Part shown: positions 15,911-21,801 of the stretch, one piece after another
Numbering within the stretch: the stretch's first letter is position 1
How the letters are laid out: each line of letters begins with the position of its first letter
NCBI RefSeq assembly: GCF_029504575.1
Contig: NZ_JAQFII010000001.1
Coordinates: 3,169,001 to 3,233,000, forward strand
Origin: Streptomyces sp. SPB162
GTDB taxonomy: Bacteria > Actinomycetota > Actinomycetes > Streptomycetales > Streptomycetaceae
DNA: 64,000 nucleotides
Direction: 5' to 3'
Notes under the pieces: model-generated
Told to the model about the DNA's origin: nothing
The model's database searches: none
What the model saw: the letters and a program-made list of their open reading frames with translations, nothing else
Position numbers and translations under genes: made by a program

Positions 15911-16012
15911 GGGCGGGCCCGGCTTAGGGGCTAGGGGCGGGCCCGGCCCAGGGGCTAGGGGCGGGCTCAGGGGCTAGGGGTGGGCCCAGGGGCTAGGGGC
16001 GGGCCGCCCCGG
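15907..16012. repeat. Five tandem CTAGGGGCGGGC repeats
   Basis: Units starting CTAGGGG begin at 15907, 15931, 15955, 15974 and 15993, of 24, 24, 19, 19 and about 20 bp. The first overlaps the stop codon of the membrane-protein gene and the last contains the stop codon (CTA on this strand) of the convergent DUF397 gene. Confidence 0.8.
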
Positions 16013-16181
16013 CTTTGAGGGCGCGGAAGAACGCGCGGAGCGCGGCGGGGGTGGTGTGGACGATCACGTCGGGATCGTCACTTTCGCGGAGGCGGATGGT
16101 TCCGTCGGGGGTGCGGGATATGTGGAGGCAGTTGGCGGCCTCCTCGCTGAAGGAGGACTTCTGCCAGGGCAATGTGGACAC
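15993..16181 (-). CDS. DUF397 domain protein
   Basis: A 62-residue DUF397 protein: the family start LPWQKSSFSEEAANCL and an end with the usual AALRAFFRALK segment. DUF397 proteins are encoded beside XRE/DUF5753 regulators in streptomycetes and act as small partners of them in the WhiJ-type systems that influence development. The GTG start at 16181 lies 12 nt after the regulator gene, so the two are co-transcribed. The C-terminus ends in a tandem DNA repeat. Confidence 0.9.
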   Translation of the reverse strand: MSTLPWQKSSFSEEAANCLHISRTPDGTIRLRESDDPDVIVHTTPAALRAFFRALKAGAARP

Positions 16182-16193
16182 GTTCGCCGCCTT

Positions 16194-17054
16194 TCAGAGG
16201 CTCTGAGCGATGCTGTGGATCAGATCCCGTGACTTCTCCGGCGTCAGGCCGCCACTGCTCATTCGATCCAGCACGACTCGGTACTTGGCAAGCTGCGCCT
16301 CCGCGTCCAAGAATTCACAACCGTGGGCGGTGTCCAGCTCCACGGTGTCCAGGAGCGGCACAGGACCCGTCGCATAGGTGATGGACTGGCCGGAGGAGAC
16401 GAAAGCCCAGGCCCCGAACGGGATCACCCGCACCTCTACGTTCTCGTGCTCACTCATCTCGATGAGATGCGCCAACTGTCGTCGCGCAACGTCTCGGCCG
16501 CCCACTCCCATTCTTAGCGCGGCTTCGTGCACGATCGTGGTGTACGGCGTCGGCCGGTCGCCGTGGTCGCCGTAAAGGATCGCCTGCCGCTTCATGCGGT
16601 ACGAGACGTGGTGCTCCAGAGCATGCGGCCGGAGTGGCGGAACCGCCTCCCGGAGGCTCGCGCGAGCATGATCCAGCGTCTGCAGCAGTCCCGGCACGTG
16701 AATCACCACGGCCACCCTCAACGCTTTCGCGTGGTGCTCCATCTCCGCCAGGTCTAGAAGCCCGAGCGGCAGGATCTCCCGGTACTCCTCCCACCAACCA
16801 CGCTTCCGCTCGCCCGTCATGCCCACGAGCGCCTCGATGAGATCCAGGTCGGAACAGTCGTAGTTCCGGGCCAGCGTGCGCACGCGCTCCGCGCTCACGC
16901 CGAAGCGGCTCGCTTCGATGTTGCTGATCTGCGCCTGGTTGGTTCCGAGCAGCCGCCCCGCCTCGGTTGACGTCAACCCCGCACGCTCCCGCAGCTTGCG
17001 CAGCTCAGCGCCGAGTCGCAGTTGGCGCGCTGTGGGGGCGTTCCTGACCGGCAT
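16194..17054 (-). CDS. XRE-family regulator with DUF5753 domain (WhiJ-like)
   Basis: A 286-residue protein with an N-terminal Cro/XRE helix-turn-helix (residues 10-65: GLTSTEAGRLLGTNQAQISN) and a C-terminal DUF5753 domain (about 95-280: VPGLLQTLDHARA, FGAWAFVSSG, TVELDT). This is the WhiJ/BldB-associated class. The ATG at 17054 has GGAGGG upstream and is preferred to a GTG at 17093. It is divergent from an RsbW-like ATPase gene and followed by DUF397. An A/T-rich inverted repeat at 17102-17122, about 50 nt upstream, is a good candidate for its own operator. Confidence 0.93.
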   Translation of the reverse strand: MPVRNAPTARQLRLGAELRKLRERAGLTSTEAGRLLGTNQAQISNIEASRFGVSAERVRTLARNYDCSDLDLIEALVGMTGERKRGWWEEYREILPLGLLDLAEMEHHAKALRVAVVIHVPGLLQTLDHARASLREAVPPLRPHALEHHVSYRMKRQAILYGDHGDRPTPYTTIVHEAALRMGVGGRDVARRQLAHLIEMSEHENVEVRVIPFGAWAFVSSGQSITYATGPVPLLDTVELDTAHGCEFLDAEAQLAKYRVVLDRMSSGGLTPEKSRDLIHSIAQSL

Positions 17055-17101
17055 CCGCCGTCCCTCCGTATTCGCGCCTGGCGCGACCGTCACTCACACG
17101 A

Positions 17102-17122: not shown

Positions 17123-17263
17123 CCGTTACGCAAAATACCTTTGCCGCCGCACTCTACGGTGTGACGCAGACCACTCGTCGTGCCGGAAGTGCACCGCCTC
17201 CCTGACGGAGGCGAAAACGCCACCGCCCGACCGAACCCTGCTCCCACTCCGAAGGAGATCCGT

Positions 17264-17713
17264 ATGGACAACGTAGCGGCGAACGCGGCCCGCCCCGGCG
17301 AGTTCTGGACGTACACCCTCCAGTTGCCGCAGGACCGCAGAGCCGTCCGCATCGCGCGGGCGACGACGCGGAGCGTGCTGCTCGCGTACGGGATGGCGCA
17401 GGTCAGCGACGTAGCGGAGCTGCTGGCCAGCGAGTTGGTGACCAACGCGCTGCGGTACTCGGACGGGCCGGCGTGGATCCGGCTGAGCAATCCGCGCACG
17501 CAGCACGTACGGGTGGGGGTGTGGGACTCCAACCCGACGATTCCGCCGCCTTTTCACGGCGCCTCGCACCCGACCGGCCCGCCCGAGGGCGCCGAGCGGG
17601 GGCGCGGGCTGCTGCTCGTGCGCGAATGTGCGGACCGGTGGGGTGGGTACGCGGTGGGCGAGGAAGTGTTCGGAATGTGCGGGAAGTTGCTGTGGTTCGA
17701 GTTGGCCGCCTGA
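17264..17713 (+). CDS. RsbW-like ATP-binding protein (HATPase_c_2, anti-sigma-factor type)
   Basis: A 149-residue GHKL-fold ATPase domain with no other domain. The N box is ASELVTNALRYSD and the G region is GAERGRGLLLVRECADRWG. Such single-domain proteins are abundant in streptomycetes, some acting as anti-sigma-factor kinases, and a member accompanies WhiJ/DUF397 units. The ATG at 17264 has GAAGGAG upstream; an earlier in-frame Met lacks a ribosome site. Its stop overlaps the next start (TGATG). Confidence 0.9.
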   Translation: MDNVAANAARPGEFWTYTLQLPQDRRAVRIARATTRSVLLAYGMAQVSDVAELLASELVTNALRYSDGPAWIRLSNPRTQHVRVGVWDSNPTIPPPFHGASHPTGPPEGAERGRGLLLVRECADRWGGYAVGEEVFGMCGKLLWFELAA

Positions 17714-17937
17714 TGCGGCCACTCGGCGATCCACCCGTCGAGGCAGCCCTTCGGGCAACTGTCAGCGCCTTGGACCTCGCGGCGGCCGACCGCTTCGATC
17801 AGGAGCTGTGCGCCGCCCGGCAGGAAGCTGAACGAACAGACAGCTCCGCGCCGTTACGACTCTTCGTGCACCGCTGGCGCACCTACATCGCGGGCGCCGG
17901 CTATCCCGCCGCCCGTGGCGCCCGGCCCTCCGGGTGA
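17713..17937 (+). CDS. Small protein, DUF6247-like, with a TTA codon
   Basis: A 74-residue protein starting at the ATG that overlaps the preceding stop (TGATG). The core reads ALDLAAADRFDQELCAAR ... PLRLFVHRWRTYIAG, resembling the DUF6247 group of small actinobacterial proteins (moderate confidence). Leu at 17854-17856 is encoded by TTA, the rare Streptomyces codon read by the developmentally controlled bldA tRNA, so translation may depend on bldA. It lies in a putative operon with the RsbW-like gene; function unknown. Confidence 0.72.
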   Translation: MRPLGDPPVEAALRATVSALDLAAADRFDQELCAARQEAERTDSSAPLRLFVHRWRTYIAGAGYPAARGARPSG

Positions 17938-17975
17938 TCGCGTTCTGGCCGGTGGGGGTCGACGTACGAGCAGCG

Positions 17976-18858
17976 GAGTGGTGCGTCTGCGGCGCTGCGC
18001 ACCTTGACCGCGCGGAGGGGGCGGCCCCGGCGCTGCGCGCCTGCCAGTGAAGCGGTTCGCTGCGCTCCCCGAACAAAGTGACCCAGTCCGCTGCGCTCCC
18101 CGGGCGGGGCGGCGGTCGGCCGTGGTCGGTGGGGCGGCGCGACTCGGGGGTGGTGAGGCAAGTGCGGGCCGCTCGGCTCGTGGGGGTTCGCGAAGAAGCC
18201 GGTACATCGGGGCCGGCGGCGAGGTCGCCTCGTGCGCCGAGCGCTCGGGCTTCGCAGCGTGCCGGACGATCAGCTCGTGTGGCCGGGCCCCCGCTATACG
18301 GACCACAGACCATCCTTAGTGATCCACATCCCCCGAAAAAGCACCCCTCAAGTCCCACCAGATATCTCTCGTCACACTCGCCCCACATTCCGGCGGGCAA
18401 GGCGGGCCAAACACCGCTCCCGCACGGCAATCCCCCATCACCCACACCCACCGGGCCAAGGCAGCACAGCGAACCGCCCCCCGCCGGACCCGCCACCCGC
18501 AGCGCACCACCGAACTGGACCCACCCCGACCACGCCAAGGGCAGCGCAGCGAACCGCCTCACTGGCAGGCGCGCAGCGCCGGAGCCGCCCCCTCCGCGCG
18601 GTCAAGGCGCGCAGCGCCGCAGACGCACCACTCCGCACCTGCCCGAACCCCAGCCACCACCCCCCAGCACACCCCCAACCGTGCCGCGCAGCGAACCGAC
18701 CCACTGGGCAGGCGCGCAGCGCCGGAGCCGCCCCCTCCCCGCGGTCAAGGCGCGCAGCGCCGCAGACGCACCACTCCGCACCTGCCTGAACCTCAGCCAC
18801 CACCACTGCCCAAGCCACCCCCACCACCCCCGCCATCCGCAACCACAGGAGACGTCAA
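17976..18858. repeat. Non-coding repeat module A (0.88 kb)
   Basis: This gene-free stretch matches module B (20051-20863) over most of its length. A left arm of about 90 nt (from 17977) carries TGCGTCTGCGGCGCTGCGC and GCGGTTCGCTGCGCT. The central part includes CGCTATACGGACCACAGACC. Two tandem right arms (about 18543-18637 and 18686-18780) are near-perfect reverse complements of the left arm. The segment about 18110-18260 is not shared with B. No protein-coding signal is convincing on either strand. With 17938-17975 and 18859-18880 it fills the gap between the DUF6247-like gene and the gene at 18881. Confidence 0.85.
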
Positions 18859-18880
18859 GCGCTGGGCTACCCTGCCGCTC

Positions 18881-19201
18881 GTGACTCGCAGAGAGATCGT
18901 CGTGCAGGGCATACGCGTGCTGGGTGTGGCAGTCGTCTGCCTGTGCGCCCTCGTCGGGCTGACAGCCGTGTCGCTGATGGGCCTGTCCGTCGCCAACGAA
19001 TGCGAACCGGGCGACCACGCGTTCTGCAACGACTGGGGCAGGAACGTGCTGTCCGTCGGGCCGATGGTCGTCGCTCTGGCGGCGGCCGCCGTGGGCAGCT
19101 ACGGCGCGATGTCCCGCCGCCCGTGGCGCCCGGCCCTGTGGGTGATCGCGATGGCTGCGCAGCTCACGGTGTATCTGTGGGTGGCGGAGATGTACGGCTG
19201 A
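18881..19201 (+). CDS. Small hypothetical membrane protein
   Basis: A 106-residue protein with three likely membrane helices: about 10-35 (IRVLGVAVVCLCALVGLTAV), 54-75 and 84-102, with two Cys in the loop ANECEPGDHAFCND. No family is recognised. The GTG start has no Shine-Dalgarno; TACCCT at 18868-18873 ends 7 nt before it, implying a leaderless mRNA whose promoter abuts module A. Its last 38 nt overlap the convergent DUF4328 gene. Confidence 0.72.
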   Translation: MTRREIVVQGIRVLGVAVVCLCALVGLTAVSLMGLSVANECEPGDHAFCNDWGRNVLSVGPMVVALAAAAVGSYGAMSRRPWRPALWVIAMAAQLTVYLWVAEMYG

Positions 19202-19940
19202 GGTCCGGGCGGGCGTCCTGGGCTTGGGAGATCGATCGTACGAAGAGGATGGCTACGACCGCAGCGGCAGCGACAGCCACGGCGCCGAGGGTCTCCAGAA
19301 CGGCGGCCGTCCGCAGGGCGTCGGACCAGCCTTGGACGTCGAGCGCTCCCCCGGTCTTCGGGCTGTCGGCGAACCTCGCCTCAGCGGCCTGCCCCGACCC
19401 GTATCCGCTGGCGGCGGTGTTGAGCGCGACGGAGACCAACCAGGCCGCCCACCACGCGTTCATGAGGCGCCGCGCCTTGGGGGTGGGGTCGGTGGCTTCG
19501 ACTATGCCGCCGGCGACCTGCCGGGGAATCCAGAAGTTGGCCACGGGAACGAACCAGCCGCCGACCGCCCAGCCGGGAGCGCGGCTGTGCGTTCCGGGGG
19601 CCAGGATCTCGGCGTTGATGCGGACCCGGCGGAACCAGAGCACAAAGGCGATGACGGTCGCGGTCATGGCGAGGCTGAAGAAGTACTGGGAGGTCGAATG
19701 GAGACCGCCCTTGATGTCGCTGATGTACGCGTGGACCCGGGACGGGTCGTTGCCTGCGGCGGCGAACAGTCCGCCGAGGTCCGATCGGTAGCGCACCTCG
19801 GCGTAGGCCCGGAGGAGTGCGAGCAATCCGGTGGCAGCCAGCAGCACACAGGCGATCAGGCCCAGACCACCGGCCCTGGCCGGGCGGAGACGCGGATCGG
19901 TGGTGTAGCGGGGCGCGGGTGGCGCGAGTGGCGTGGACAT
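19164..19940 (-). CDS. DUF4328 domain membrane protein
   Basis: A 258-residue polytopic protein. The DUF4328 core is clear: VLWFRRVRINAEILAPGTHS, then GWAVGGWFVPVANFWIPRQV. About five hydrophobic segments lie between a short Pro-rich N-terminus and a Pro/Thr-rich C-terminus. The family is widespread in streptomycetes and of unknown function. It converges on and overlaps the 18881 gene, and the pair sits between repeat modules A and B. Confidence 0.85.
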   Translation of the reverse strand: MSTPLAPPAPRYTTDPRLRPARAGGLGLIACVLLAATGLLALLRAYAEVRYRSDLGGLFAAAGNDPSRVHAYISDIKGGLHSTSQYFFSLAMTATVIAFVLWFRRVRINAEILAPGTHSRAPGWAVGGWFVPVANFWIPRQVAGGIVEATDPTPKARRLMNAWWAAWLVSVALNTAASGYGSGQAAEARFADSPKTGGALDVQGWSDALRTAAVLETLGAVAVAAAAVVAILFVRSISQAQDARPDLSRTSPPPTDTP

Positions 19941-20050
19941 GACGCGCAGGGTATCGGGAGCCCGCAGGTCGCGGGGTACGGGCCGGTCGTTCGGCTCGCT
20001 GCGCTCTCCGACGGGCTGCCGGCGGTGGTGGCCGAGGTCAGAACAATGCG

Positions 20051-20863
20051 CAGTGGGGCGTCTGCGGCGCTGCGCACCTTGACCGCGCGGAGGGGGGCGG
20101 CCCCGGCGCTGCGCGCCTGCCAGTGAAGCGGTTCGCTGCGCTCCCCGAACAAAGTGCCCCCAGTCCGCTGCGCTCCCCGGGCGGGGTGACGGCCGGCCGA
20201 CGACAGTGGGGCTGTGCTGCTCGGCTTGTGGTGGGTGCGGGCGCCCGGCTGGTTCGGGCCCCGCCAGGAGCGCCGAGCCCTCGAACCCCCGGCCAGGCCC
20301 GGACGATCAGCTCGTGCGGGCGGCCCCCCCGCGCTATACGGACCACAGACCGTTCTTAGCGATCCACATCCCCCGAAAAGGCGCCTCTCAAGTCCCATCA
20401 GACATCTCTCGTCACACTCGCCCCACATTTCGGCGGGCAGGCGGGCCAAACACCGCCCCCGCACGGCAATCCCCCATCACCCACACCCACCGGGCCAAGG
20501 CAGCACAGCGAACCCCGCCCCCGCCGGACCCGCAGCGCACCACCGAACTGGACCCACCCCGACCACGCCAAGGGCAGCGCAGCGAACCGCCTCACTGGCA
20601 GGCGCGCAGCGCCGCAGCCCCCCCCTCCGCGCGCAGACGCACCACTCCGCACCTGCCCGAACCCCAGCCACCACCCCCCAGCACACCCCCAACCGGGCCG
20701 CGCAGCGAACCGACCCACTGGGCAGGCGCGCAGCGCCGGGGCCCGCCCCCTCCCCGCGGTCACGGCGCGCAGCGCCGCAGACACACCACTCCGCACCTGC
20801 CCGAACCCCAGCCACCCCACCGCCCAAGCACCCCCACCAACCGCAACCACGGGAAACGTCAAC
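20051..20863. repeat. Non-coding repeat module B (0.81 kb)
   Basis: A second copy of module A in the same orientation: a left arm from 20051, the conserved centre with CGCTATACGGACCACAGACC, then two right arms (about 20576-20652, shortened inside, and 20698-20795) inverted relative to the left. Both modules end with an AACCAC-(A/G)-GGA-N-ACGTCAA motif; here ispE begins its 3' end 6 nt later. The gap 19941-20868 holds no credible gene. Confidence 0.85.
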
Positions 20864-20868
20864 TCCCG

Positions 20869-21801
20869 TCAAGCCGGCAGGATCGTCGCTCCCGGTGCCG
20901 GGGACGTCGTGACGCGGGTGGTGCGGCAGGTGCCGGATGCCAGGACCGCGTCGGCGATCTTCTCGGCTTCCTCCGCGCTGCCCGCCAGGAAGGCGCACGT
21001 CGGGCCCGAGCCGGAGACCAGGGCGGCCAGGGCGCCGGCGTCCGTGCCAGCGCGGAGGGTTTCCGCGAGGGACGGGCGCAGCGACAACGCGGCCGGCTGG
21101 AGGTCGTTGCTCAGGGCTGCGGCCAGTGCCCGCGCATCGCCGGAGGCGAGCGCTTCGATGAGAACCGGGGCCGGTTCCGGGTCGGGGATGTCGGCCGTGG
21201 TGGCGCCCGAGCCGGACGCTTCGCGCAGCCGGTCGCACTCGCGGTAGACGGCCGGGGTCGACAGGCCGCCGTCCGCGACGGCGAAGACCCAGTGGAACGG
21301 CCCCCGCACGTCGAGCGGGGTGAGGATCTCGCCCCGGCCGCGTCCGAGCGCGGCGCCGCCGATCAGGTTGAACGGTACGTCGCTGCCCAACTCGGCGCAG
21401 ATGGCGAGGAGTTCGTCCTGCGTGCTGTTCAGCCTCCACAACGCGTCGCACGCGAGCAGCGCGCCCGCGCCGTCCGCGCTGCCACCCGCCATGCCGCCCG
21501 CGACGGGGATGTCCTTGGCGATGTGGATGTGGACGTCGGGCTCGATGCCGTGCCGCGCGGCGAGCGCGACGGCGGCGCGGGCGGCGAGGTTCGTGCCGTC
21601 CAACGGGATCTGGGCGGCGTCCGGGCCGGACGCCGTGATCCGCAGGCTGTCGGCGGGGGTGACGGTGACCTCGTCGTACAGGCCCACCGCGAGGAAAACG
21701 TTCGCCAGGTCGTGGAAACCGTCGGGCCGCAAGCCCCCCACGGCGAGCTGCGCGTTGACCTTGGCGGGGATCCGGACGCTGACGGAGACGGGCGTGCTCA
21801 C
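20869..21801 (-). CDS. ispE: 4-diphosphocytidyl-2-C-methyl-D-erythritol kinase
   Basis: A 310-residue GHMP kinase of the non-mevalonate isoprenoid pathway. The N-terminal [20 protein letters not shown] and ATP loop [17 protein letters not shown] are typical. The GTG start at 21801 overlaps the rsmA stop by 4 nt (GTGA), giving the coupled rsmA-ispE pair usual in actinobacteria. Its stop lies almost at the edge of repeat module B. Confidence 0.96.

What the first reader, a model, noticed from the sequence alone, without database searches (positions are those of the whole stretch)
17976..20863. Twin 0.8-0.9 kb non-coding modules with inverted arms bracket a convergent gene pair
Modules A (17976-18858) and B (20051-20863) are in direct orientation and closely similar, each with one left arm and two right arms that are near-perfect reverse complements of it, around a conserved centre holding CGCTATACGGACCACAGACC. 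The two genes between them (18881 and 19164) could form a composite unit that moves, recombines or is amplified as a whole. I know of no named element with this layout.
Basis: seen in the sequence. Interest (0 to 1): 0.62.

Follow-up and report, generated by a model that had tools for sequence, protein, structure and literature searches.

The report
Dispersed hairpin-armed noncoding repeat family
The two repeated stretches are copies of a noncoding inverted-repeat element that sits at about 15 fixed places in this bacterium's chromosome, mostly where two genes end facing each other and often beside a fast-changing regulator gene cassette; it looks like an old miniature mobile element, not a unit that carries the two genes between the copies.

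Summary
In detail: A and B are about 90% identical copies (836 aligned columns) with one left arm and two right arms each. They are not a private duplication. The host genome holds 15 such elements at 14 places, all with the same plan: 1-3 inward left arms, a centre with a conserved 153-nt core, and 1-4 outward right arms. Each ~104-nt arm carries three GCGCAGC hairpins; no arm was found outside an element. The same plan occurs in relatives, usually at the same slots, and in a second genus with a different 45-bp hairpin core.

The composite-unit idea is not supported: each gene between A and B occurs at this locus in relatives without the adjacent module. Elements prefer slots between convergent genes (10 of 15) and lie near XRE-DUF397 cassettes (8 of 15 within 2 kb; random mean 0.2). 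At one locus a cassette deletion ends exactly at the element's terminus.

Best reading: an old, now apparently immobile, MITE/REP-like inverted-repeat family retained at gene 3' ends, possibly as bidirectional terminators; A/B arose by local duplication. Mobile origin and terminator role are inferred. I found no published description in the held library.

The parts
17947..18806 (+). Element A (left terminus to right terminus; A/B similarity runs on to 18858)
   Evidence: arm/core HMMs and terminus alignment; A/B alignment
17965..18065 (-). A left arm (arm model positions 1-103, three GCGCAGC hairpins)
   Evidence: nhmmer arm model, 82 bits; R1 88.6 bits
18262..18414 (+). A core, 153 nt, conserved in all 15 own copies
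   Evidence: core HMM 124 bits; R2 E=4e-31
18544..18643 (+). A first right arm
   Evidence: 76 bits
18686..18789 (+). A second right arm
   Evidence: 69 bits
20019..20820 (+). Element B
20038..20141 (-). B left arm
   Evidence: 84 bits; best R1 match of the genome
20299..20453 (+). B core
   Evidence: 113 bits; R2
20577..20656 (+). B first right arm, degenerate
   Evidence: 36 bits
20700..20800 (+). B second right arm
   Evidence: 59 bits
17904..17942 (+). 39-nt fragment of the 3' end of gene 18881 (95% identical to 19112-19150) abutting the left end of A: remnant of a duplicated then deleted copy (inference)
   Evidence: family D11
18881..19201 (+). 106-aa membrane-like protein, no Pfam match; flanked, not carried, by the elements
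   Evidence: present without A in L059, L060
19164..19940 (-). 258-aa DUF4328 protein
   Evidence: PF14219 98 bits; present without B in L061
16011..17937 (.). Neighbouring XRE-DUF397 cassette: DUF397 (16011-16181, -), XRE/DUF5753 (16194-17093, -), HATPase (17180-17713, +), DUF6247-like (17713-17937, +)

Best explanation
A and B are two copies of a dispersed noncoding inverted-repeat element (an old, non-autonomous, MITE/REP-like family). Plan: a central core that can form a hairpin, flanked on each side by outward-facing ~104-nt arms, each with three GCGCAGC hairpins and a common terminus (CACTNCGCACTGCTCTGACCTCAGCC). Arms can be multiplied in tandem. Shown: the family, its plan, its chromosomal slots, the lack of arms elsewhere in the genome, the preference for convergent gene ends and for XRE-DUF397 cassettes, and that the genes between A and B are independent of them. 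Inferred: it once spread by a transposase that this genome no longer has; it is now kept at gene 3' ends because it does little harm there or because it serves as a bidirectional terminator/insulator; its arms and termini are recombination and deletion endpoints that help the neighbouring cassettes to be lost and replaced; A and B arose by a local tandem duplication of [gene 18881 ... element] with later deletion of most of the first gene copy.
For: 15 elements at 14 places, all with the same plan; an arm search finds arms only inside elements. Two-genus conservation of arms with different cores. All eleven element places picked up in G007, G019, G020 by the first search are syntenic with own element places. 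Termini share one consensus on both sides, and a terminus pattern occurs only at these elements in the genome (10 matches, 0 in the reversed control), so no autonomous partner with these ends was seen. Empty sites: A absent in G019, G007; B absent in G021; A, both genes and B absent from the slot in G020; element L027 absent in G019. 10 of 15 between convergent genes (background 10/57; binomial P 3e-5). 8 of 15 within 2 kb of a DUF397 gene (random mean 0.20, maximum 4 in 20,000). Deletion of a cassette exactly at the element end in own L023 versus G020 L051. In arms, hairpins 2 and 3 keep pairing through changes on both sides (26 cells vs 10.6 shuffled). Bidirectional transcript ends at 10 of 24 XRE-DUF397 pairs are reported in S. 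clavuligerus (PMC8269248).
Against: No target-site duplication or exact empty site could be defined because flanking spacers have diverged. No transposase was identified; only RAYT was searched as a family. In the second genus the convergent preference is absent (2 of 14 convergent, 3 divergent), so a terminator role is not general. The consensus scan finds no intrinsic terminator with a U-tract in the A-B region beyond chance (2 found, 1.4 expected). A right arm of A does not fold better than shuffles as RNA (z -1.2 / +1.1). Several positional counterparts in relatives share only 52-57% of the core, which simple vertical descent does not explain well.
Confidence: 0.6

Rival explanations
1. 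Structured noncoding RNA genes: the core is a functional RNA and the arms are part of it or its terminators.
For: Near-gapless 153-nt core over 24 copies; core hairpin in L029 (z -2.4) and in second-genus L108 (z -12); a named hairpin in the first-genus core pairs in 65% of cells against 29-43% when slid, covariation reached by 3 of 500 shuffles; many G-U pairs on one strand.
Against: No Rfam match even at E 0.5; RNAalifold consensus only -4 kcal/mol; mutual information shows no clean helix; core of module A itself does not fold better than shuffles; core profiles of the two genera do not match each other.
Confidence: 0.15
2. Composite unit: two modules flank and mobilise genes 18881 and 19164.
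For: Direct orientation and similarity of A and B.
Against: 18881 present at the locus without A in G019 and G007, 19164 without B in G021; all other elements are single.
Confidence: 0.04
3. Protein-binding chromosome-organising sites (e.g. for a nucleoid or segregation protein), symmetric about the core.
For: Polar, inverted GCGCAGC arrays around a palindromic core; fixed slots, 12 of 15 between 2.5 and 4.6 Mb of the 6.67-Mb contig.
Against: Patchy: found in 7 of 249 family genomes and missing at single slots in close relatives, unlike a housekeeping site.
Confidence: 0.08
4. Low-complexity GC-rich intergenic convergence without homology.
For: GCGCAGC motifs are common in GC-rich DNA (35 GCGCAGCG sites on both strands of the window).
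Against: Arm model scores up to 90 bits, no arms outside elements in the genome, ordered termini, conserved core, two genera.
Confidence: 0.02

Closest known systems
MITEs of bacteria (review PMC10969869, from its abstract)
   Same: Short, noncoding, inverted-repeat, multi-copy, intergenic; no own transposase.
   Different: No target-site duplication shown, no parent insertion sequence found, ~104-nt arms with ordered hairpins, arm number varies, slots largely fixed between species.
REP/BIME elements and REPINs with RAYT transposases (own knowledge)
   Same: Intergenic palindromic units in inverted pairs, long vertical persistence, hairpins.
   Different: Far larger unit with a separate core; RAYT family absent in this genome and in two of the other carriers.
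BOX elements of pneumococcus (own knowledge)
   Same: Modular element with a variable number of one module.
   Different: Here the outer arms, not a central box, are repeated.
Streptomyces telomere palindromes bound by Tap (PMC4513846)
   Same: GCA-loop hairpins in tandem series.
   Different: Internal chromosomal places; arm model finds nothing in the contig ends tested; no evidence of terminal-protein replication. Contig ends may not be true telomeres.
Bidirectional transcript ends at XRE-DUF397 pairs in S. clavuligerus (PMC8269248)
   Same: Stem structures at the 3' end of the same gene cassettes, between genes on opposite strands.
   Different: Described from transcripts, not as a repeat family; no expression data here.

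Membership tests
MITE | Multi-copy noncoding element with terminal inverted repeats | tested here: met
   15 copies, inverted arms and a common terminus on both sides
MITE | Target-site duplication | tested here: inconclusive
   flanks too diverged in G019, G007, G021, G020
MITE | Ends shared with an autonomous element | tested here: not met
   terminus pattern with up to 3 mismatches occurs only at the elements in this genome; a partner could have been lost, so it is called MITE-like, not a MITE
REP/REPIN-RAYT | RAYT (Y1_Tnp) gene in the genome | tested here: not met
   PF01797: none in G000, G007, G019; present in G020, G021
Known Rfam RNA | Match to a covariance model | tested here: not met
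   gathering scan of the window, permissive scan of nine element loci up to E 0.5
Composite transposon | Flanked genes move with the modules | tested here: not met
   genes present at the locus without the modules in relatives
Intrinsic terminator | GC stem followed by a T run | tested here: not met
   2 found vs 1.4 expected in 17700-20900; U-less terminators not covered by the scan
Bidirectional terminator (functional) | Transcript 3' ends on both strands at the element | not testable with these tools
   no transcript data
Streptomyces telomere | Terminal location | tested here: not met
   internal places; no arm match in four contig ends

The most novel reading that the evidence does not exclude
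The elements are standing exchange platforms: their hairpin arms and termini promote repeated loss and replacement of XRE-DUF397-abaA regulator cassettes (and of the cores themselves) at fixed chromosomal slots, giving a recurrent turnover of developmental and antibiotic regulators.
Probability: 0.15. Interest if true: 0.75.

Novelty: new variant of a known kind. Interest (0 to 1): 0.5.

Why it matters
It names a repeat family that I could not find described, with an unusual plan (variable numbers of outward arms about a replaceable core), and it ties that family to XRE-DUF397 cassettes, a large and fast-diversifying regulator set in streptomycetes. If the elements terminate transcription on both strands or serve as recombination endpoints, that would bear on how these cassettes are insulated and exchanged.

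Tried and rejected
Exact-match scan of genome contigs with 17 bases of the A/B 20-mer gave six hits, mostly in unrelated phyla, read as chance; that motif is private to A and B. Plasmids and phages: no match to the core-plus-arms stretch. Coding hypothesis for core and arms: rejected, indels are not multiples of three and conservation is in contiguous blocks (inspection). RNA covariation by mutual information: no clean helix. GNA-loop idea (loop middle base varies most): true in hairpins 1 and 3, not in 2, and the GNA strand does not fold better than its complement, so kept only as a hint. Telomere relationship: contig ends carry no arms. RAYT partner: rejected. A class-wide search gave one weak extra hit, G560, not followed. 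Literature searches found no description.

Full report
Observation. The repeats described are present at the coordinates given, with small corrections. Arms of A: 17965-18065 (left) and 18544-18643, 18686-18789 (right); of B: 20038-20141, 20577-20656 (degenerate), 20700-20800. A and B are 90% identical over 836 aligned columns.

A dispersed family. A search of the host genome with A gave 98 matches at E below 0.001, nearly all falling into 14 places on the main contig. I fetched 13 further places and fitted a 104-nt arm profile: every place has left arms on the minus strand, a centre of 285-478 nt, and right arms on the plus strand, with 1-3 left and 1-4 right arms. A search with an arm consensus found arms only in these places. 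Each arm holds three GCGCAGC hairpins at ordered spacing. All 15 centres share a 153-nt, almost gapless core, in either orientation; a core model finds these 15 in the genome as strong matches, plus two weak reverse-strand matches inside them. Both outer ends share a terminus, CACTNCGCACTGCTCTGACCTCAGCC, and the terminus pattern occurs nowhere else in the genome.

Relatives. Within the genus (35 genomes) the core occurs only in the window's genome and four relatives, G007, G019, G020, G021, which are also the nearest by ispE-rsmA identity (89-93%; the rest 72-85%). The eleven places first picked up in G007, G019 and G020 are syntenic with own element places, and G020 has a partial arm at the L027 slot. 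Yet the cores at matching slots are mostly only 52-57% identical, no more than unrelated copies in one genome; three pairs keep 72-80%, and orientation differs at two slots. The slots are therefore old while the cores have been replaced or have changed very fast. In 249 genomes of the family the arm model found only these five plus two genomes of a second genus, G049 and G060. There the plan is the same but the centre is ~140-210 nt and holds a different, long imperfect hairpin (L108 z -12). These searches score only the best candidates per genome, so wider absence is soft evidence.

The genes between A and B. In G019 and G007 gene 18881 follows the same ATPase and DUF6247-like genes with no element between; in G020 A, both genes and B are absent from the slot; in G021 gene 19164 stands beside ispE without B and a weak arm remnant lies near. 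The genes are thus independent of the modules. A 39-nt fragment of the 3' end of 18881 abuts the left end of A; I infer a tandem duplication of gene 18881 through the element, followed by a deletion ending at the element's terminus.

Setting. Ten of 15 elements lie between convergent genes, five between tandem genes, none between divergent ones, against 10 convergent of 57 gene pairs in the window (P 3e-5; L031 counted as tandem because the caller missed two DUF397 genes seen). The second genus shows no such preference (2 of 14). Eight of 15 lie within 2 kb of a DUF397 gene, random mean 0.20; these are XRE/DUF5753-DUF397 cassettes, often with an ATPase, i.e. whiJ-bldB-abaA-like sets (PMC10294661). 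The cassettes come and go at these slots: present in G020 or G007 but not in the window's genome at L023 and L030, the reverse at L028. At L023 the window's genome keeps only the last ~50 nt of the DUF397 gene, joined directly to the element's right terminus, while G020 has the whole cassette there. That is a deletion ending at the element's terminus.

What it does. Arm hairpins 2 and 3 keep pairing through changes on both sides, mostly between the two genera, so this rests on few events. The core of the first genus has a hairpin that pairs better than slid controls, but the structure was drawn from one of its own sequences. I commit to an old MITE/REP-like inverted-repeat family, now apparently immobile, kept at gene 3' ends; a bidirectional terminator role is plausible, helped by the report of bidirectional transcript ends at XRE-DUF397 pairs in S. 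clavuligerus (PMC8269248), but is not shown, and the second genus speaks against it being general.

Known or new. No Rfam family, no RAYT in three carriers, no plasmid or phage match, no description found in the held papers. The kind is known; the family, its plan and its tie to the cassettes appear not to be.

Noticed in passing
L023:3400-3560 and L051:4360-6420: XRE-DUF397-ATPase cassette present in G020 and deleted in the window's genome, leaving ~50 nt of the DUF397 3' end fused to the element terminus.
   Followed up: yes
L030 vs L050/L053; L028 vs L047: Cassette gain or loss at element-bearing slots between close relatives; L047 keeps only a DUF397-like 3' remnant.
   Followed up: partly
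L103-L116, L122: Second-genus elements with a 45-bp imperfect hairpin core rich in TTGTC/GACAA motifs, in at least two subtypes; some slots shared by G049 and G060 (L103/L113, L104/L116).
   Followed up: partly
L076:1890-3001 and L078:1890-3001: The ends of the two contigs of the genome share 1112 identical bases, apparently carrying a transposase gene; contig ends may not be telomeres.
   Followed up: no
L076:17-404: Tandem repeats of about 61 bases near the end of the main contig.
   Followed up: no
L124 (G560:C5:391320-391378): Single weak arm-model match (30.9 bits) in a 2-Mb genome of another family.
   Followed up: no
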